Shown in pieces: positions 4,654 through 30,763 of a DNA stretch of 31,306 nucleotides. The notes under the pieces are model-generated. The model had not been told where the DNA came from, did not search any database, and was given only the letters and a program-made list of their open reading frames with translations. The translations under genes and the position numbers were made by a program. The stretch comes from a virus. The stretch covers positions 1 to 31,306 of IMG/VR virus record IMGVR_UViG_3300049216_000612; one strand, 5' to 3'. Positions within the stretch are counted from its first letter, which is position 1. Every line of letters begins with the position of its first letter.

Positions 4654-4787
4654 GAAAGAAAGCGGTTCTTTTTTGAAAAAAAGAACCAAAAAACTTTTGC
4701 TCATGAGTCCACGGCGGTTTCAACGGCATGGTCTAAATTAAAAGAAGTTTTTTGCTTCTTTTTTTCAAAAAAGAAGTTCTTTCTTTC
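4654..4787. repeat. Palindromic intergenic element R1
   Basis: Fills the gap between terL and portal. Outer arms are GAAAGAAAG and CTTTCTTTC. The left hairpin (4664-4687) pairs GGTTCTTTTTT with AAAAAAAGAACC; the right hairpin (4755-4776) pairs CTTCTTTTTT with AAAAAAGAAG. The inner left arm is AAAAAACTTTTG; the right is diverged (AAAAGAAGTTTTTT). The centre contains GGCGGTTTCAACGGCATGGT, closely shared with R5. Confidence 0.9.
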
Positions 4788-8019: not shown

Positions 8020-8158
8020 GAAAAAGCGCTTCTTTTTTTTGCAAAAAAAGAAGCAAAAAAACTCTCATTCATTGAGGGCTGTGGCACGATCCAGGCCAAC
8101 GCCCGCAAAGAGCAAAAGTTTTTTGGTTCTTTTTTTCAAAAAAGAACTTTTTCCTTTC
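8020..8158. repeat. Palindromic intergenic element R2
   Basis: Lies between capsid and decoration-like genes. The left hairpin (8028-8054) is GCTTC...GAAGC; the right hairpin (8126-8147) is GTTC...GAAC, so the two stems use different but self-consistent bases. The left inner arm is degraded (AAACTCTC) while the right is intact (CAAAAGTTTTTT). The centre shares GGGCTGTGGC with R4. Confidence 0.9.
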
Positions 8159-10357: not shown

Positions 10358-10498
10358 GTAAGTAAGAGGTTCTTTTTTGAAAAAAAGAACCAAAAAACTT
10401 TTGGTTATTGGCCCTCGGGAGCGAAACAATCCAGGCCTAAATTATCAAAAGTTTTTTTGCTTCTTTTTTTTCAAAAAAAGAAGCGCTTTCTTCTACTT
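10358..10498. repeat. Palindromic intergenic element R3
   Basis: Begins directly after the tail-terminator stop. The left hairpin (10368-10391) is GGTTC...GAACC, the right hairpin (10459-10484) GCTTC...GAAGC. The inner arms are AAAAAACTTTTG and CAAAAGTTTTTT. The element ends just upstream of the small gene at 10517. Confidence 0.9.
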
Positions 10499-10516: not shown

Positions 10517-10657
10517 ATGACATATCATCTGGTGGTGCTGCGGCCCTTTGAGGGCTTTGGCCGCGGCGATGTAATTAAGGACGCCGCCACCGTACAGAAA
10601 ATTCTGGCCGGCCCGCAGGCCGGTTTTGTTGTGCGCGTCAGCACGGGAAAGGATTGA
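10517..10657 (+). CDS. Small protein upstream of the tail sheath
   Basis: A 46-residue open frame that a length cut-off would miss. It starts MTYHLVVLRPFEGFGRGD, ends VVRVSTGKD and is preceded by AGAAGGA at 10502-10508, eight bases before the ATG. Its stop lies four bases before the sheath start. Mu-like phages have a short gene (DUF2635/Mu gp38 type) at this same place; this protein shares size, basic/aromatic character and position, but homology is not shown. The strong ribosome binding site and tight coupling support a real gene. Confidence 0.65.
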   Translation: MTYHLVVLRPFEGFGRGDVIKDAATVQKILAGPQAGFVVRVSTGKD

Positions 10658-10661
10658 GCCG

Positions 10662-12212
10662 ATGCCGGTTTTTGCCGAGGGGGCGTTGAACACGACGGCG
10701 CTGATCGTGCCGGATTTATATGTGCAGATTGTGGCGCCGCAGAGCCTGCTGCTGAATGGAGTGCCGACCGATACGCTGGGCGTGGTTGGAACGGCGAGCT
10801 GGGGGCCGGTGGGGGAACCGACGATCATCGGCGATATGGGGGGCTATGCCGCCTCGTTCGGGCCGGTGATGGCGCGCAAATATGATATGGGCACGCAGGT
10901 GGCAACCGCCGTGCAACAGGGCGCCGCGAATTTTCGCTGCGTTCGAGTGACGGATGGAACGGACAGCGCGGCGTCCGTGACTCTGCTTGGGGCCATTACG
11001 TTCACCGCGCTTTACACCGGCAGCCTGGGCAACCAGTTGGCGTTGACCTTGTCCGCCGGTTCCGCCGCGAATTCCTGGCGGCTGACGGTGGCGTTTCCGG
11101 GGCAGAGCCCGGAAGTGTTCGACAACATCACCGGCGCCGGCGCGGCATTCTGGACCAATCTGGCCAGCGCGGTGAATGCCGGTCATGGGGCGTTGCGCGG
11201 GCCTTCCAAGCTGGTTGCCGCTTCGGTGGTTTCATCTGGCGCGGCGCCGTTGGCCGGGACGTATCCGTTCTCGGCCGGGACGCCGGGGACGGATGGCGCC
11301 GGTGCGGTGACCGCGGCGACGCTGGTGGGCGGCGATACGCTGCCGCGGCGTGGCATGTTCGCGCTGCGCGGCCAGGGCTGCGCGCTGGCGATGCTGGCTG
11401 ACGCTGATGATGCCACGCAGTGGAGCACGCAGGTTGCGTTTGGGCTGAGCGAGTCGGTGTACATGATTCTGACCGGACCGGCAGGAGATACCATTGCCAA
11501 CGCGGTGACGGTGAAGGCGGAGGCGGGGATTGATACCTATGCCGCCAAGATGATGTTTGGCGACTGGGTGTATTGGTATGACCAGGCCAATGCGCTGACG
11601 CGGCTGGTTTCCCCGCAAGGGTTTGTGGCGGGGCGGCTTGCGAATTTGTCGCCCGAGCAGTCATCGCTGAACAAGCCGCTTTACGGCGTGATCGGCACGC
11701 AGAAATCCGGCCAGCCCGGCGGCGGTACGGCGACGACATACGCCACCGCGGATCTGGCCGTGCTGCTCTCGGCGGGGATCGACGTGATTGCCAATCCGCA
11801 GCCTGGCGGGGCGTATTGGGGGGTGCGGGGCGGGCATAACGCGTCCTCGAATGCCGCCACCAACGGTGATAATTATACGCGGCTGACGAATTATATCGCG
11901 GCGACGCTTTCGGCCGGCATGGGCGCATATGTGGGGCAGTTGGTGAATGCCACGCTGTTCCAGAATATTCGCGCGACGTTGCTGGCGTTTTTGAACGGGC
12001 TGCTGGGGCAGGGCTTGCTGGGAAGCACTGATGGCTCGCTGCCATTCGCGGTGGTGTGCGATACCAGCAATAATCCGGCGAGCCGGACCGGGCTGGGCTA
12101 TGTGCAGGCGGATGTGCAGGTGAAGTACCAGGCAATCAACGAGAAGTTTATCGTGAATGTGCAGGGCGGGCAGACGGTGCAGGTTAGCCGGCAGACGTCG
12201 CCGAGCATGTGA
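10662..12212 (+). CDS. Contractile tail sheath protein
   Basis: Forms the contractile outer cylinder that drives the tube through the envelope. The 516-residue protein has a sheath-type start (PGTALNT-like entry replaced by GALNTTALIVPDLYVQIVAP), a LGVVGTASWGPVGEP strand and an early GDMGGYAASFGP motif (about residues 45-70), and the conserved C-terminal domain: GVRGGHNASSN (about 390-400), NYTRLTNYIAATLSAGMGAY, and an IRATLLAFLNGLLGQGLL stretch, ending GYVQADVQVKYQAINEKFIV. A long variable middle (about 110-280) is the usual site for surface insertions. ATG 10662 follows the small gene closely; a GTG at 10626 lies inside that gene. It defines the phage as a myovirus. Confidence 0.93.
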   Translation: MPVFAEGALNTTALIVPDLYVQIVAPQSLLLNGVPTDTLGVVGTASWGPVGEPTIIGDMGGYAASFGPVMARKYDMGTQVATAVQQGAANFRCVRVTDGTDSAASVTLLGAITFTALYTGSLGNQLALTLSAGSAANSWRLTVAFPGQSPEVFDNITGAGAAFWTNLASAVNAGHGALRGPSKLVAASVVSSGAAPLAGTYPFSAGTPGTDGAGAVTAATLVGGDTLPRRGMFALRGQGCALAMLADADDATQWSTQVAFGLSESVYMILTGPAGDTIANAVTVKAEAGIDTYAAKMMFGDWVYWYDQANALTRLVSPQGFVAGRLANLSPEQSSLNKPLYGVIGTQKSGQPGGGTATTYATADLAVLLSAGIDVIANPQPGGAYWGVRGGHNASSNAATNGDNYTRLTNYIAATLSAGMGAYVGQLVNATLFQNIRATLLAFLNGLLGQGLLGSTDGSLPFAVVCDTSNNPASRTGLGYVQADVQVKYQAINEKFIVNVQGGQTVQVSRQTSPSM

Positions 12213-12349
12213 GAAGCAAGACCTTCTTTTTTTGAAAAAAAAGAAGCAAAAAAACGTCTGGTCCTGCGGGCTGTGGCGCCGGCGTCGCCCAAGCCCCCAG
12301 TGAGCAAAAGTTTTTTGCTTCTTTTTTTCAAAAAAGAAGTTCTTGCTTC
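12213..12349. repeat. Palindromic intergenic element R4
   Basis: Starts on the base after the sheath stop. Outer arms GAAGCAAG and CTTGCTTC are perfectly complementary. The left hairpin is at 12223-12246 (CTTC...GAAG), the right at 12318-12339 (CTTC...GAAG). The left inner arm has drifted to AAAAAAACGTCTG. The centre shares GGGCTGTGGC with R2. Confidence 0.9.
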
Positions 12350-12366
12350 CTTTATGGGAGTTTTTC

Positions 12367-12795
12367 ATGCCGTATAATACGTTTTCTGTTGGCAATGACT
12401 GCCAGCTTGTGGTGATGGGCCCGTTCGGGCGGGTGGATCTGGCGCATGTGACGGGGTTTGAGGCGCGCCAGGTGACTCAGGCGGTGCGGGTGGACCGGCT
12501 GGATGGCGTGCAGCTGGGAGCGGAATTGCCGAAGGGGTGGTCCGGCACGTTTACGTTGGATCGGGGCTCGCCGGCGGCGGATGATTTTATTGCGGCGATC
12601 GAGCAAGCGTATTTTGCGGGGCAGTCGATTGCGGCGGGAACGCTGTACCAGTATGTGAATGAGCCGGACGGGTCGACCTCGACGTATCAGTTTTCCGGTG
12701 TGGTGTTCAAGCTGACTTCGGCGGGGGCGTATAAGGGGGATGCGCCGGTGGCGCAGCGGCTGGACTTTTTTGCGTCCAGCCGGGTGAGCGTTTGA
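12367..12795 (+). CDS. Tail tube protein
   Basis: The 142-residue inner tube subunit of the contractile tail. The beta-rich sequence (NDCQLVVMGPFGRVDLAHVT, RQVTQAVRVDRLDGVQLGAE, GWSGTFTLDRGS, then YQFSGVVFKLTSAGAYKGDA) fits Mu/P2-type tube proteins. GGGAG at 12356-12360 precedes ATG 12367 by six bases; a farther ATG-like start at 12343 falls in R4. It lies between sheath and tail-assembly chaperone, the expected place, and its TGA overlaps the next ATG (TGATG). Confidence 0.88.
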   Translation: MPYNTFSVGNDCQLVVMGPFGRVDLAHVTGFEARQVTQAVRVDRLDGVQLGAELPKGWSGTFTLDRGSPAADDFIAAIEQAYFAGQSIAAGTLYQYVNEPDGSTSTYQFSGVVFKLTSAGAYKGDAPVAQRLDFFASSRVSV

Positions 12796-13097
12796 TGGAA
12801 CGGATTGTGACGGATAAGGCCGGGCGGGTGATTTCGTTACGGCGTGTGGGTGTGCTGGAGACGCTGCGGCTGTACAAGGCGCTGGGGCCGGAGCTTTCCG
12901 CGAACGCGGCTTATATGGGGCTTGCGAGCATCGCGGCGGCGGTGGCGGTGCTGGATGGGGTGCCGATGCCGTTCCCGGCGAATGAGGCGGGGGTTGAAAA
13001 CTTGCTGGAGCGGTTGGGAGAGGATGGGGCGAATGCGGTGAGCGCCGCGATTGCGCCGATGGCGCCGGACATGATGGTGGCGCAAGCGGGAAACTGA
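12795..13097 (+). CDS. Tail-assembly chaperone, short form (gpG-like)
   Basis: A 100-residue protein (about 14% of which is the MVAQAGN end region) directly after the tube gene. Proteins here bind and load the tape measure while the tail forms. The frame starts MERIVTDKAGRVISLRRVG with an overlapping TGATG and ends on GGA AAC TGA. The slippery heptamer G GGA AAC at 13088-13094 is the last sense sequence, and the -1 frame is open for 61 more codons. This is the lambda G/GT and Mu/P2-type arrangement, in which a small fraction of ribosomes make a longer fusion. Family identity is by position and frameshift, supported by the extension's motifs. Confidence 0.8.
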   Translation: MERIVTDKAGRVISLRRVGVLETLRLYKALGPELSANAAYMGLASIAAAVAVLDGVPMPFPANEAGVENLLERLGEDGANAVSAAIAPMAPDMMVAQAGN

Positions 13098-13279
13098 GCC
13101 GGCACCCTGGGCTGATTGATTGCCTGTATCTGGTGAAGTGCGGGGTGCCGTATGATGTGGCGTTTGGGTTGGATGACACGGAGCGGATGGCGCATGTGGT
13201 GACGTTGGGGGGCTTGGCGGGGGGACGGTTTGACTGGCGGCGGTTGAGGTGGGATGAGGGTTTGTTCGTGGAACGATAA
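13088..13279 (+). CDS. -1 frameshift extension of the tail-assembly chaperone (gpGT-like)
   Basis: After slipping on G GGA AAC (13088-13094) the -1 frame reads CTG AGC and stays open to TAA at 13277-13279. The extension of about 61 residues starts LSRHPGLIDCLYLVKCGVPY and contains DVAFGLDDTERMAHVV, then FDWRRLRWDEG. The fusion would be about 161 residues. A conserved LIDCLYLVKCGVPYDVAF-type C-terminus is what the T part of other chaperones looks like. It has no start codon of its own and would be missed by standard annotation. There is only a weak 4-bp hairpin downstream, so the stimulating structure is not clear. Confidence 0.8.
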   Translation, partial: GKLSRHPGLIDCLYLVKCGVPYDVAFGLDDTERMAHVVTLGGLAGGRFDWRRLRWDEGLFVER

Positions 13280-13740
13280 CGCAATAAATAAGCCGTTAAG
13301 ACCTTTTGTATTCATATGGCGGCCTGACACGATACGCTTCTCGCGGTAAGATGGGTGTTTGGGTTGCGTGCAGCGGTTTGGTCGTTTGTCTTGCTGTCTT
13401 TGGTTGGCTCTCGCGCTCGGTCCAGGGTGACGCTGTTGGCGAAGTTGAGTTTTAATACGCTCGCGCGGCCGGCCTGTCTGTCTGACGCGGATCGTTCTAG
13501 GAATGTTGTGGAGGAAAGCCTGAGGATGGGTGAAGCTGAATGCGAGACCGTTATCTGCGACAGTCCCTAAAACTTTGCTGCGTAGCATCATTGTTATTTA
13601 CGGCGAAACTGGCCTTCAGGGTGATGCTGGCGACTGGTTGGAATGGATGATTAAATCATTACGAGTTCAGTTGATGAGGAGAATATAGGTCTTTGGGTTT
13701 CTTTTTATGAACAGATCCACGGCGCTTTTTAGGACAGTCA
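13280..13740. other. Gap with no recognisable gene
   Basis: About 460 bases between the chaperone extension and the lipoprotein-like gene. The only rightward open frame (13355-13570, 71 codons) begins at an uncertain start, has no clear ribosome binding site and no recognisable motif. No transposase fragment or inverted repeat is evident. This is where the large tape-measure gene normally starts, so the stretch may be decayed or replacement DNA. Confidence 0.6.
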
Positions 13741-14178
13741 ATGCCCAAGTTCGGCTGGCTGGTGGTATTTTTGCCGATATGCTCATGTAGCATACAACAC
13801 GGCGTGACAGACTCTCGACAAATCAACTTTTCTCTTCTTGAAGAGAAAAGTCGCTTAAAGCCCCCTGACCAAACTCAAGATCTAATCATCGACAAAGATA
13901 GGATGGAGAATGAAGTCAAGTCTTATTTGGAAGGTCGATTCCCCCGCGGCTACCCATTATCGGCCGCTCTATCAGAATTGAGGAATGGAGGTGCGACTTG
14001 GTATTTCGTCACCGACCCTGAAGAAATGAATACATTCGTTTGCGATTTTAGCCACCCGGGATACGGTTTGATTGGACATTTTTTTGTAGACTTGGATTGG
14101 GTGGTTATTCTTCATTTGGACGACATGGATAAAGAAATATTAAGTTTGGAAGCGAATTTTGAAGAGTCGAGCTTCTAA
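13741..14178 (+). CDS. Putative lipoprotein, cargo-like
   Basis: A 145-residue protein with a short hydrophobic N-terminus and a possible lipobox ICSC (Cys16), then a soluble domain with YLEGRFPRGYPLSAALSELR, NGGATWYF and an acidic end (HLDDMDKEILSLEANFEESS). The FPxGxPL-L-xxL-xxGA pattern is seen in many small Gram-negative lipoproteins of unknown function. AGGA at 13731-13734 precedes the ATG by six bases. Codon use is much more AT-rich than the neighbours: 25 of 60 bases are G or C at 13801-13860. It overlaps the next gene by 20 bases. It may be an immunity or surface protein paired with that gene; this is inference. Confidence 0.65.
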   Translation: MPKFGWLVVFLPICSCSIQHGVTDSRQINFSLLEEKSRLKPPDQTQDLIIDKDRMENEVKSYLEGRFPRGYPLSAALSELRNGGATWYFVTDPEEMNTFVCDFSHPGYGLIGHFFVDLDWVVILHLDDMDKEILSLEANFEESSF

Positions 14179-14797
14179 AAATTATTTATTCAAAACGAAG
14201 GGCATAATAGGCAGTACAACAGTCTACTTCAAAAAACTTCATTATCTTGGTAATAAGACATATTATCACGAATTTCTGGTTTGGACCAAGGATGACGGAT
14301 CGCAAGTCATCATTCGTGGTGGTCCTTTGGGTTCAGGCGGTGGAAGTGGCGGAGGTAGCGGTAGTTTGGGATTTGGTGAGCCGGGCACCGGTGATAATGT
14401 TCCCTTCGCCAAGATCGCGGTTATAAGTCGGTCATTTCCGAGCTACTTTCGGGATTTCGAGGGATCGGCCGTTGATCCTCAAGATGTGGTAATGACGGGT
14501 TCCGACGGGATGTTGCAGCCGCGTGTTTGGCGTATGCTGCTAGCGGCCAAGCAAATCAACGAGCTGAATATCCCGTACGCGGCCGGCGGTCCGAATAGCA
14601 ATAGCGTCGTCACAACCTTGCTTCAAGCCGCGGGATTGCCGCAGCCGAAGGGTAATGGTTTGGATGGGCCTTATCCGGCGCCTGGTGCCGATATGTCGCT
14701 GTTGTACGGGAAATATTCGGCGGGACAGGGCTATGAGGAATTATTTGGAAATGTCGCCGAGCGTGGAGAAAAAGGACATCGGCCACACGGCGCATAA
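14159..14797 (+). CDS. Protein with YYHEFLVW / RGGP / PNSNSVV motifs
   Basis: A 212-residue protein. Motifs in order: YYHEFLVW (His37), VIIRGGP (51-56), a GSGGGSGGGSGSLG linker (58-71), then INELNIPYAAGGPNSNSVVT (133-152) and TLLQAAGL. The order of an early histidine followed by an N-S-N site resembles permuted papain/NlpC-like amidases in which the usual Cys is replaced; that comparison is from memory and tentative. The TTG start at 14159 has GGAAG six bases upstream and overlaps the lipoprotein gene, so the two are coupled. The C-terminus overlaps the next frame by 65 bases. It could be an effector, a peptidoglycan enzyme or part of a replaced tape-measure region. Confidence 0.6.
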   Translation: MKSRASKNYLFKTKGIIGSTTVYFKKLHYLGNKTYYHEFLVWTKDDGSQVIIRGGPLGSGGGSGGGSGSLGFGEPGTGDNVPFAKIAVISRSFPSYFRDFEGSAVDPQDVVMTGSDGMLQPRVWRMLLAAKQINELNIPYAAGGPNSNSVVTTLLQAAGLPQPKGNGLDGPYPAPGADMSLLYGKYSAGQGYEELFGNVAERGEKGHRPHGA

Positions 14798-15788
14798 CGT
14801 AGCCGGCGATATTGCACGCGCCGTGGACGAACCGGCCACTCAACCGGTTGATGGATCGGGAAGAACCAAAGGCCCTCCCAGACCGGCGCGGACGGGGTAC
14901 GCGAAAGGGGGCGCTGGGCTGACGCATCAGACGGTCCTGGCGATTGGGCACGGCGCGTATTTGTCGGTTGCGCCGATGGCAAAACTGCGACTGGTTAGCC
15001 GGCGATTCGGCGAGAACCTCCGATCCGGACGGGCTGAGCCTGGTGCGGCGCCGGCGGCCCTGCAAGTGCCCGCGTTGCCGCCTTACGCCTTGGCTGCCAT
15101 GCGGGGCGGTGCGGCGCTTTTGGGGCCGCGCCACGGCGCCGTGAACATGACCGGGCGGCATGCGCTTTTGCTTGCCAATAGGGGTCAATTTTTCAGGCCG
15201 CCGAACGTGAAGCCAGCCAATGATCAAAGGTTGAATGGTTTGTCGCCCGAATATGCGCGGCGATCGAGGCGTTCAAATATCAACCCGTGGGTGGCGCGGC
15301 TGTCGAAACCTTCGCAAGCCGGCAGTGACCAAAATTTCGCTCCCGGTAGAGCATCGGCGCTCGGCGGGTCAGGTCTCGATGTTGCGGTCAAAAATGCGAT
15401 TGCATTTCAGTCCACTCGCTTCGACGCGGGCCATTTGATGGGCCGGACCATGCCAAGCGTGGCGCCTCGCCCGCATGGTGCTGGGGCGGCGGGTTATAAC
15501 ATGATGGGTGCCGGATTGGATGTATCGGCGCCTAACGCGCCGTTGGACCGCCAGGGGATGGCAGCCGCAACGGATTTTTGGGCCCGAAAAAACCAGGCCG
15601 GCAAGGCGCTGGACGCACGCCCGGTGCAGACCGCGCACGCCATGGAGACGCCGCGCACGGATGGCGCCGCCATGAAGCAAGCCATCGAGGAGCATTTTGC
15701 CTTGGCTGCGCGCCTGCCGCCCGCCGGAATAACGGGGTTCGATCCGCGGCTGAGCCCGGCCTGGGCAGGTATGCAATTGCCGGGGTGA
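14733..15788 (+). CDS. Possible tape-measure remnant or small tail protein
   Basis: A frame of up to 351 residues that begins within the previous gene (ATG 14733, or 14751). It is rich in Gly, Pro, Arg and Ala, with few long helices, unlike a full tape measure. Its C-terminus (MKQAIEEHFALAARLPPAGI, then GFDPRLSPAWAGM) resembles the last segment of some alphaproteobacterial tape-measure/minor tail proteins, recalled without a search. Since no other tape-measure gene exists between chaperone and baseplate, this may be the surviving C-terminal end of one whose front was replaced. Alternatively it is an unrelated gene, or a non-functional frame. The start and function are uncertain. Confidence 0.45.
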   Translation: MRNYLEMSPSVEKKDIGHTAHNVAGDIARAVDEPATQPVDGSGRTKGPPRPARTGYAKGGAGLTHQTVLAIGHGAYLSVAPMAKLRLVSRRFGENLRSGRAEPGAAPAALQVPALPPYALAAMRGGAALLGPRHGAVNMTGRHALLLANRGQFFRPPNVKPANDQRLNGLSPEYARRSRRSNINPWVARLSKPSQAGSDQNFAPGRASALGGSGLDVAVKNAIAFQSTRFDAGHLMGRTMPSVAPRPHGAGAAGYNMMGAGLDVSAPNAPLDRQGMAAATDFWARKNQAGKALDARPVQTAHAMETPRTDGAAMKQAIEEHFALAARLPPAGITGFDPRLSPAWAGMQLPG

Positions 15789-15931
15789 TGAGTTTAGGAG
15801 AACGACGTTGTTGCCGGCTACACTGTGACGATAGGAAAATTGTTTCAGTTGCGCTGATCAGAACAATGTCGACAATGCCGGCCGGGAGCTGGATGCCGCT
15901 ACCTGTCTTTATCGGGGTGTTTTGGAAGTAA
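15788..15931 (+). CDS. Small open frame, unknown
   Basis: A 47-codon frame whose ATG overlaps the previous stop in TGATG, the junction used elsewhere in this operon. The protein (MSLGERRCCRLHC, then VALIRTMSTMPAG, MPLPVFIGVFWK) has no known motif. It is followed within a few bases by R5. It could be a real small gene or decay of the tape-measure region. Confidence 0.3.
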   Translation: MSLGERRCCRLHCDDRKIVSVALIRTMSTMPAGSWMPLPVFIGVFWK

Positions 15932-16067
15932 AAGTAAGAGGTTCTTTTTTGAAAAAAAGAACCAAAAAACTTTTGCTCTTTAGGCCCCTGGCGGTTTCAA
16001 CAGCACGGTCCGGGACCAAAAGTTTTTTGCTTCTTTTTTTCAAAAAAGAAGCGCTTGCTTTCTTTCT
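15932..16067. repeat. Palindromic intergenic element R5
   Basis: Sits between the atypical region and the baseplate cassette. The left hairpin (15940-15963) is GGTTC...GAACC, the right (16029-16052) GCTTC...GAAGC. The inner arms are complete, AAAAAACTTTTG and CAAAAGTTTTTT. The centre shares GGCGGTTTCAAC and CACGGTC with R1. Confidence 0.9.
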
Positions 16068-16078
16068 CTAGGAGTTTC

Positions 16079-16777
16079 ATGAGCAATATCGTCCTCACGC
16101 TCGGCGGCGTGACGTTCCAGGATTTCGAAGTCCCGGAAAAAATCACGCTGGGCAACACGCAGCGCGTTGCGATGCATGAGCTGATCGGCGGCGGCCAGGT
16201 CGTGGACGCGCTGGGCGATGCGATGGGAAAGATTGCGCTGGCAGGTGTTTTCTCCGGCGCGGACGCCGCGGCGCGGGCGCAGAGCCTGGAGGGCGCAACC
16301 GCGCTGGGGGCGCAACTGCCGATGCTGTGGGATTGTTTTTTCTATACCGTCATCATCGAGACGTTCGAGGCGGAATACGAAAAACCTTGGTGGATCCCAT
16401 TTTCGCTGGTCTGCCAGATCGTCTTCGATCCGGTGGCGGCGGTGGCGGATTCGGTATCCTCGTTAACTAATCTTGTCGCAGGCGATGTCGCATCGGCGGT
16501 GGCTCTGGCGCCGCAGGCGGGCCTTGCGTTGGGGTTGTCCGGCGTGCCCGGCGCCGCGGCACTTGCCGCCGCGCAAGGCGTCGTCGCGGCGGGCATCACC
16601 GCGTCGGACGCGGCGCTGACCGCCGGCGGGGCGTTTTTTGATGGCGCGGTAGATGCGGTATCAGGCGCAGCGGGATTGACGCAGCTCGTCGGTGTTTCAG
16701 GCCAGCTCGCGGCGGTCACCGGGCTGAGCTCCTATATCAACCGCGCGGCGACGAACACGGCGAACGAGCTCCTATGA
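16079..16777 (+). CDS. Baseplate/tail protein, Mu gp43-like N-terminus
   Basis: A 232-residue protein. The first about 115 residues have the layout of phage DNA-circulation/Mu gp43-type tail proteins (VTFQDFEVPEKITLGNTQRV, GGQVVDALGDAMGKIALAG, then a beta-rich YTVIIETFEAEYEKPWWIPF). The rest (about 130-230) is alanine-rich and helical (VAAGITASDAALTAGGAFF), perhaps packing inside the baseplate hub. AGGAG lies at 16070-16074, five bases before the ATG. The stop overlaps the next start (ATGA). It opens the baseplate operon, just where the tape measure should be followed by hub genes. Confidence 0.75.
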   Translation: MSNIVLTLGGVTFQDFEVPEKITLGNTQRVAMHELIGGGQVVDALGDAMGKIALAGVFSGADAAARAQSLEGATALGAQLPMLWDCFFYTVIIETFEAEYEKPWWIPFSLVCQIVFDPVAAVADSVSSLTNLVAGDVASAVALAPQAGLALGLSGVPGAAALAAAQGVVAAGITASDAALTAGGAFFDGAVDAVSGAAGLTQLVGVSGQLAAVTGLSSYINRAATNTANELL

Positions 16778-17963: not shown

Positions 17964-18100
17964 GAAAGCAAGAACTTCTTTTTTGAAAAAAAGAAGCAAA
18001 AAACTTTTGTTAGTTTGTCCCGAGGTAGTTTCACCGCCCGGATTCATTAGCAAAAGTTTTTTGGTTACTTTTTTTCAAAAAAGTAACTACTTACTTTCTT
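17964..18100. repeat. Palindromic intergenic element R6
   Basis: Between gpD and the spike gene. The left hairpin (17975-17996) is CTTC...GAAG. The right hairpin (18064-18087) is GTTAC...GTAAC, a paired change of the usual GCTTC...GAAGC. The outer right arm TACTTACTTTC mirrors GAAAGCAAGAA. Inner arms are AAAAAACTTTTG and CAAAAGTTTTTT. Confidence 0.9.
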
Positions 18101-22084: not shown

Positions 22085-22225
22085 AGAAGAAAGTAAGCGC
22101 TTCTTTTTTGAAAAAAGAAGCAAAAAACTTCTGTTTGCTGGGGGTCGAGGCACCTCCGTCGTCACAACTCGCCATTAGCAAAAGTTTTTTGCTTCTTTTT
22201 TTCAAAAAAGAAGCGCTTACTTTTC
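22085..22225. repeat. Palindromic intergenic element R7
   Basis: The most perfect copy: the 41-base left arm (22090-22130) and 42-base right arm (22182-22223) are complementary apart from one extra A, flanking a 51-base centre. Outer AAAGTAAGCGCTTC pairs with GAAGCGCTTACTTT. It separates the glycine-rich adhesin from the adaptor. Confidence 0.92.
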
Positions 22226-25291: not shown

Positions 25292-25445
25292 AAGTAAGGA
25301 CTTCTTTTTTTGAAAAAAAAGAAGCAAAAAAACTTTTGCTCCTTGAGCCCGAGGCCATGTCGCCCCCGGCGGCCAACTAACAAAAGTTTTTTGCCGCTGC
25401 CCGCGGAGGGCTTCTTTTTTTCAAAAAAGAACCTCTTGCTTTCTT
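25291..25445. repeat. Palindromic intergenic element R8, with inserted mini-hairpin
   Basis: Begins at the tailspike stop. The left hairpin (25301-25324) is CTTC...GAAG. The right arm is interrupted by about 17 extra bases (25394-25410) containing CCGC-TGCCC-GCGG, absent in the other eight copies. The right hairpin has GCTTC opposite GAACC, one mismatch, as if from two copies. Confidence 0.88.
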
Positions 25446-30624: not shown

Positions 30625-30763
30625 GGCAAGCAAGATGTTCTTTTTTAAAAAAAAGAACCAAAAAACTTTTGCTCCTTGGCCCCGAGGGGCGTCGCGCCCG
30701 GCGGCCCATTAGCAAAAGTTTTTTTGCTTCTTTTTTTTCAAAAAAAGAAGTCCTTCCTTTCTT
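30625..30763. repeat. Palindromic intergenic element R9
   Basis: Starts on the base after the endolysin stop. The left hairpin (30637-30658) is GTTC...GAAC with an all-A/T loop; the right (30726-30750) is CTTC...GAAG. Inner arms AAAAAACTTTTGC and GCAAAAGTTTTTT are intact. The centre shares GCTCCTTG and CCCGAGG with R8. Confidence 0.9.

What the first reader, a model, noticed from the sequence alone, without database searches (positions are those of the whole stretch)
13088..13279. Programmed -1 frameshift in the tail chaperone
G GGA AAC lies in the zero frame just before TGA. A -1 slip opens 61 codons ending at 13279 and containing LIDCLYLVKCGVPYDVAF-type sequence, as in gpG/gpGT of other phages. 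The layout is well known but the second product would be missed by gene callers.
Basis: partly seen in the sequence, partly recalled or inferred. Interest (0 to 1): 0.6.

Follow-up and report, generated by a model that had tools for sequence, protein, structure and literature searches.

The report
Ribosomal frameshift making phage tail chaperone
Just before the stop codon of a phage tail-assembly gene, a slippery sequence followed by a conserved RNA hairpin lets some ribosomes slip back one base and make a longer second protein, a well-known phage trick found here in a family that databases still list as unknown.

Summary
G_GGA_AAC lies at 13088-13094, directly before TGA (13095-13097). A -1 slip there opens 61 codons (13094-13276, TAA 13277-13279). 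I compared 129 distinct relatives, mostly prophages of Acidocella and other Acetobacteraceae. The second domain is in the -1 frame in 129/129. An in-frame slippery heptamer is present in 128/129 (GGGAAAC 118, AAAAAAC 8, GGGAAAT 2). A stop follows directly in 112. In 116/128 there is no start codon in the -1 frame at or before the heptamer, so independent initiation cannot supply the conserved N-terminal residues. Codon choice at the heptamer is frozen, and the -1 frame is under purifying selection (median dN/dS 0.33). The upstream protein is predicted to have a tail-assembly-chaperone-like fold (Mu FS-gp41, HK97). This is a new family of a known kind: gpG/gpGT-type frameshifting. The same heptamer-plus-TGA layout was predicted earlier for Burkholderia phage KL1. 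Frameshifting itself is inferred, not measured.

The parts
12343..12795 (+). tail-tube-like gene (phrog_12993, unknown) directly upstream
   Evidence: follows the sheath gene 10626-12212 (phrog_23)
12795..13097 (+). G-like tail assembly chaperone, 100 aa from ATG 12795 (TTG 12792 possible)
   Evidence: phrog_20383 E 2.3e-17; predicted fold pLDDT 90.5, nearest annotated folds HK97 chaperone, Mu FS-gp41 and Bacillus phage Gemini chaperone; 15 of 54 relatives match phrog_508 'tail assembly chaperone', best E 0.0026
13088..13094 (+). slippery heptamer G_GGA_AAC
13095..13097 (+). zero-frame stop TGA directly after the heptamer
   Evidence: a stop here in 112 of 128 relatives (TGA 80, TAG 24, TAA 8)
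13094..13279 (+). -1 frame T-like domain, 61 codons plus TAA; fusion GT predicted at 161 aa
   Evidence: -1 frame in 129/129 relatives, dN/dS 0.33; alignment A3
13100..13109 (+). 5' arm of the conserved stem, CGGCACCCUG
13110..13140 (+). 31-nt loop of the hairpin
13141..13150 (+). 3' arm of the conserved stem, CGGGGUGCCG

Best explanation
This is a programmed -1 ribosomal frameshift of the lambda gpG/gpGT kind in a contractile-tailed phage of Acetobacteraceae (host inferred from relatives). Ribosomes reading the chaperone gene reach G_GGA_AAC and are held by the stop codon and by a 9-10 bp hairpin that starts 5-6 nt downstream. A minority slip back one base, re-pair on GGG AAA, pass the stop and add 61 residues. 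The cell so makes much short chaperone (G, 100 aa) and a little long chaperone (GT, 161 aa). By analogy with lambda, G binds the tape measure and the T part recruits tube subunits. Shown here: heptamer, frame, conservation, selection on the second frame, hairpin under selection. Inferred: that slippage occurs, its rate, the role of hairpin and stop, and the binding partners.
For: In 129 distinct relatives the second domain is always in the -1 frame, and 128 keep an in-frame X_XXY_YYZ. In 116/128 the -1 frame has no ATG/GTG/TTG at or before the heptamer, and in 16 it is closed by a stop one codon upstream, so the conserved N-terminus of T can only come from the fusion. Synonymous codons are frozen at the heptamer (GGA 1.00 against 0.28) while codons further upstream behave as expected. 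Median dN/dS of T is 0.33 and of G 0.44. Hairpin: mean 9.09 of 10 pairs against 7.23 for synonymous recodings of the same proteins; mean MFE -28.2 against -16.7 kcal/mol, lower in all 95. Two sequences keep one stem pair by changing both sides (C-G to G-C in L012, to U-A in L158). The chaperone-like fold and position agree.
Against: No expression data. XXXAAAC is less slippery than XXXAAAG in E. coli (PMC5009743), so the rate may be low. One relative (L141) has no recognisable heptamer. The fold matches are weak (PDB rank 1 is the HK97 chaperone but E 2.2; Mu FS-gp41 probability 0.91, E 0.1). Covariation in the stem is sparse because the stem hardly varies, and it does not exceed shuffles convincingly.
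Confidence: 0.95

Rival explanations
1. T is a separate small gene started from its own start codon by re-initiation after the G stop.
For: GTG/TTG codons do occur inside the T frame, 2-19 codons downstream of the heptamer start.
Against: The conserved residues before those codons (LSRHPxLxDCLYL) could not be made; positions 6-11 of T are conserved as amino acids while their codons vary. The position of the first possible start differs between relatives. It would not explain the frozen heptamer.
Confidence: 0.03
2. The frame break is a sequencing error or a decayed gene.
For: A single break between two frames is what an error would look like in one contig.
Against: The same break at the same codon is found in 129 distinct sequences from metagenomes and cultured Acidocella, Acidisoma and Rhodopila genomes.
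Confidence: 0.005
3. T is reached by transcriptional slippage or by stop-codon readthrough rather than by ribosome slippage.
For: AAAAAAC in 8 relatives holds six A.
Against: GGGAAAC has no long homopolymer. Readthrough would stay in the zero frame. From established knowledge of both mechanisms, neither predicts the frozen XXXYYYZ.
Confidence: 0.01

Closest known systems
Phage lambda gpG/gpGT and the tail-chaperone frameshift conserved in long-tailed phages (Xu, Hendrix and Duda 2004, cited in PMC3483164; PMC5009743)
   Same: Two proteins sharing one start, -1 slip at XXXYYYZ near the end of the first frame, placed after the tube gene, fold of the chaperone kind
   Different: No sequence match of T to a named family; AAC instead of AAG as the second codon; immediate stop; conserved hairpin; contractile tail
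Burkholderia phage KL1 gp18/gp19
   Same: GGGAAAC immediately before TGA (PMC3483164); even gcGGGAAACtga is identical, and KL1 G also ends in AGN
   Different: Siphovirus, G 142 aa and GT 264 aa by the paper; no strong stem like the one here in a single-sequence fold of KL1
Caulobacter phages phiCbK (AAAAAAC) and Colossus (GGGAAAC)
   Same: The same two heptamers as in this family, in the pre-tape-measure chaperone (PMC3556154)
   Different: Large siphophages; homology to this family not tested here
Phage Mu FS-gp41
   Same: Contractile tail, frameshifted tail assembly protein, similar predicted fold
   Different: Sequence similarity not detected by the family profiles searched

Membership tests
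gpG/gpGT-type tail assembly chaperone with -1 frameshift | slippery XXXYYYZ in frame near the end of the first ORF | tested here: met
   128 of 129 distinct sequences, the window included
gpG/gpGT-type tail assembly chaperone with -1 frameshift | second domain conserved in the -1 frame with no start of its own | tested here: met
   129/129 in frame -1; 116/128 without a start at or before the heptamer
gpG/gpGT-type tail assembly chaperone with -1 frameshift | gene lies between the tube gene and the tape measure gene | tested here: inconclusive
   Tube side met. A tape-measure-like ORF with a conserved C-terminus follows in many relatives (62 of the 96 searched), but 18 of 54 relatives have no gene between T and the hub-adaptor gene, and the window ORF 14655-15788 matches no tape measure family
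gpG/gpGT-type tail assembly chaperone with -1 frameshift | chaperone fold | tested here: inconclusive
   HK97 chaperone is rank 1 of 350,542 chains but E 2.2, TM 0.46; Mu FS-gp41 and Gemini chaperone probability 0.91-0.92; phrog_508 weakly in 15 of 54
gpG/gpGT-type tail assembly chaperone with -1 frameshift | both products made, long one in the minority | not testable with these tools
   needs mass spectrometry or a reporter
-1 PRF with downstream structural stimulator | stem-loop or pseudoknot about 5-9 nt after the heptamer | tested here: met
   9-10 bp stem, spacer 5-6 nt, 95/95 relatives, selected beyond protein needs; effect on slippage not tested
-1 PRF with upstream Shine-Dalgarno stimulator (dnaX type) | SD-like sequence about 10 nt upstream | tested here: inconclusive
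   only a weak excess of anti-SD pairing about 4-14 nt upstream, mean -3.4 against about -2 kcal/mol

The most novel reading that the evidence does not exclude
The strict pairing of a codon that slips poorly in E. coli (AAC in 126 of 128, never AAG or AAA) with an immediate stop and a very stable hairpin marks a distinct sub-type. In it the slip is set by slow termination and by the Asn tRNA (possibly its queuosine state), so the chaperone ratio could respond to host release-factor or tRNA-modification levels.
Probability: 0.1. Interest if true: 0.55.

Novelty: new member of a known kind. Interest (0 to 1): 0.3.

Why it matters
It gives a name and a second product to a widespread but unannotated gene pair in prophages of Acetobacteraceae, and shows that standard family libraries miss the 61-codon extension. 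The conserved hairpin gives a clear, testable stimulator for a phage tail frameshift.

Tried and rejected
tblastn of G and of T against 50,697 phage records: no match. Pfam on G, lenient over 54 relatives: nothing relevant. PDB by sequence profile: nothing relevant. Rfam on 12950-13350: no match. Upstream Shine-Dalgarno stimulator: weak and inconclusive. I suspected the conserved gene 16055-16777 might itself be the tape measure; its fold is instead a gpU / Mu baseplate hub-adaptor-like domain followed by about 115 helical residues. A pseudoknot was not searched for beyond nested folding and a scan for conserved stems.

Full report
Observation. The ORF 12792-13097 (start most likely ATG 12795, overlapping the tube gene's stop) ends ...GCG GGA AAC TGA. 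G_GGA_AAC is at 13088-13094. In the -1 frame the sequence continues for 61 codons, from CTG at 13094 to TAA at 13277-13279. The finding's coordinates and count are exact.

Context. The window is a 31,306-base virus record with terminase, portal, major head, sheath, baseplate and tail fibre genes, so it is a contractile-tailed phage. Relatives of the tube gene lie in many IMG/VR contigs (304 stretches, best 80 kept) and in 63 genome loci, chiefly Acidocella, Acidisoma, Rhodopila and other Acetobacteraceae. No record in the phage collection encodes a recognisable G or T.

Conservation. I located G and T by profile in the fetched loci and removed identical stretches, leaving 129, the window included. 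T is in the -1 frame relative to G in all 129. An in-frame heptamer is present in 128: GGGAAAC 118, AAAAAAC 8, GGGAAAT 2. A stop follows directly in 112; in 13 the stop comes 18 nt later and in 3 it comes 3 nt later. L141 has no heptamer. In 116 of 128 no ATG, GTG or TTG occurs in the -1 frame at or before the heptamer, and in 16 the -1 frame is closed by a stop one codon upstream. T is therefore made as a fusion, if it is made at all. That it is made follows from selection: median dN/dS 0.33 for T and 0.44 for G among pairs with moderate synonymous divergence.

RNA signals. In 96 sequences dereplicated at 85% identity, same-amino-acid pairs share the codon GGA in 100% (28% expected) and AAC in 96% (58% expected); codons further upstream behave as expected. 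A second block of frozen codons lies 48-53 nt after the heptamer, GGG GTG (94% and 98% against 33% and 39%), and it is complementary to the CGG CAC CC near the start of T. Aligned (A1) and folded, these form a stem of 13100-13109 with 13141-13150 in the window, 10 pairs around a 31-nt loop. The window region has -28 kcal/mol, z = -2.4 against shuffles. Recoding each protein with synonymous codons in silico lowers the mean number of pairs from 9.09 to 7.23 and raises the mean energy from -28.2 to -16.7 kcal/mol; all 95 natural sequences are more stable than their recoded mean. Sliding the 3' arm by 1-3 columns drops pairing from 91% to 38-51%. Two sequences show a two-sided change that keeps one pair. 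Covariation counts otherwise say little, because the stem hardly varies. The spacer of 5-6 nt is within the range usual for -1 frameshift stimulators (general knowledge).

Identity of the proteins. G was modelled from 54 homologues (pLDDT 90.5). Among solved structures the HK97 tail assembly chaperone ranks first, though not significantly. Among viral models one unnamed phage protein is significant, and annotated chaperones, including Mu FS-gp41, follow at probability 0.9. Fifteen of 54 homologues weakly match PHROG 508, tail assembly chaperone. Together with the position I take G to be the chaperone.

Comparison with the literature. Lambda-type G/GT frameshifting is conserved among long-tailed phages (PMC5009743). 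GGGAAAC immediately before a TGA was predicted for phage KL1 (PMC3483164), and GGGAAAC and AAAAAAC for Colossus and phiCbK (PMC3556154). In E. coli, A_AAA_AAC slips much less than A_AAA_AAG; G_GGA_AAC and A_AAA_AAC are reported for haloarchaeal tailed viruses, with second codons called mammalian-like (PMC5009743). The near-complete preference for AAC here (126 of 128, the other two AAT), with a strong hairpin and an adjacent stop, is a notable combination, but not a new kind of system.

Verdict. Supported: a new, unannotated family of a known kind, with one addition, a conserved probable stimulatory hairpin.

Noticed in passing
4680-4761, 8114-8132, 10384-10466, 12306-12324, 15956-16036, 17990-18070, 22114-22198, 25318-25336, 30652-30733: Fifteen copies of a 19-nt repeat like AAAGAACCAAAAAACTTTT (none expected by chance), mostly in gene gaps and often as inverted pairs about 60 nt apart. 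Exact copies are rare in the relatives fetched. Perhaps a mobile palindromic element or terminator family.
   Followed up: partly
13280-15800: Between T and the hub-adaptor gene lies a stretch whose size runs from about 0 to 3.5 kb across relatives; 18 of 54 have nothing there. Many relatives (62 of 96 searched) carry an ORF of about 245-510 aa with a conserved C-terminus like RLPPSGxTGFDPRLTPAWAG and a variable body: a short tape measure or a variable cargo protein.
   Followed up: partly
13741-14797: Low-GC insert (36-57% GC) with two ORFs, P0005 (starts like a lipoprotein) and P0004, without family matches. Weak relatives of both lie at the same place in L033/L106.
   Followed up: partly
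16055-16777: Gene of unknown PHROG folds as a gpU / Mu baseplate hub-adaptor-like domain with an added C-terminal helical tail of about 115 residues.
   Followed up: partly
L141, end of its G ORF (about 6.7-6.8 kb in the locus): The only relative without the heptamer; it reads GCATTTTCC where GGGAAAC is expected. Perhaps a decayed prophage or another slip site.
   Followed up: no
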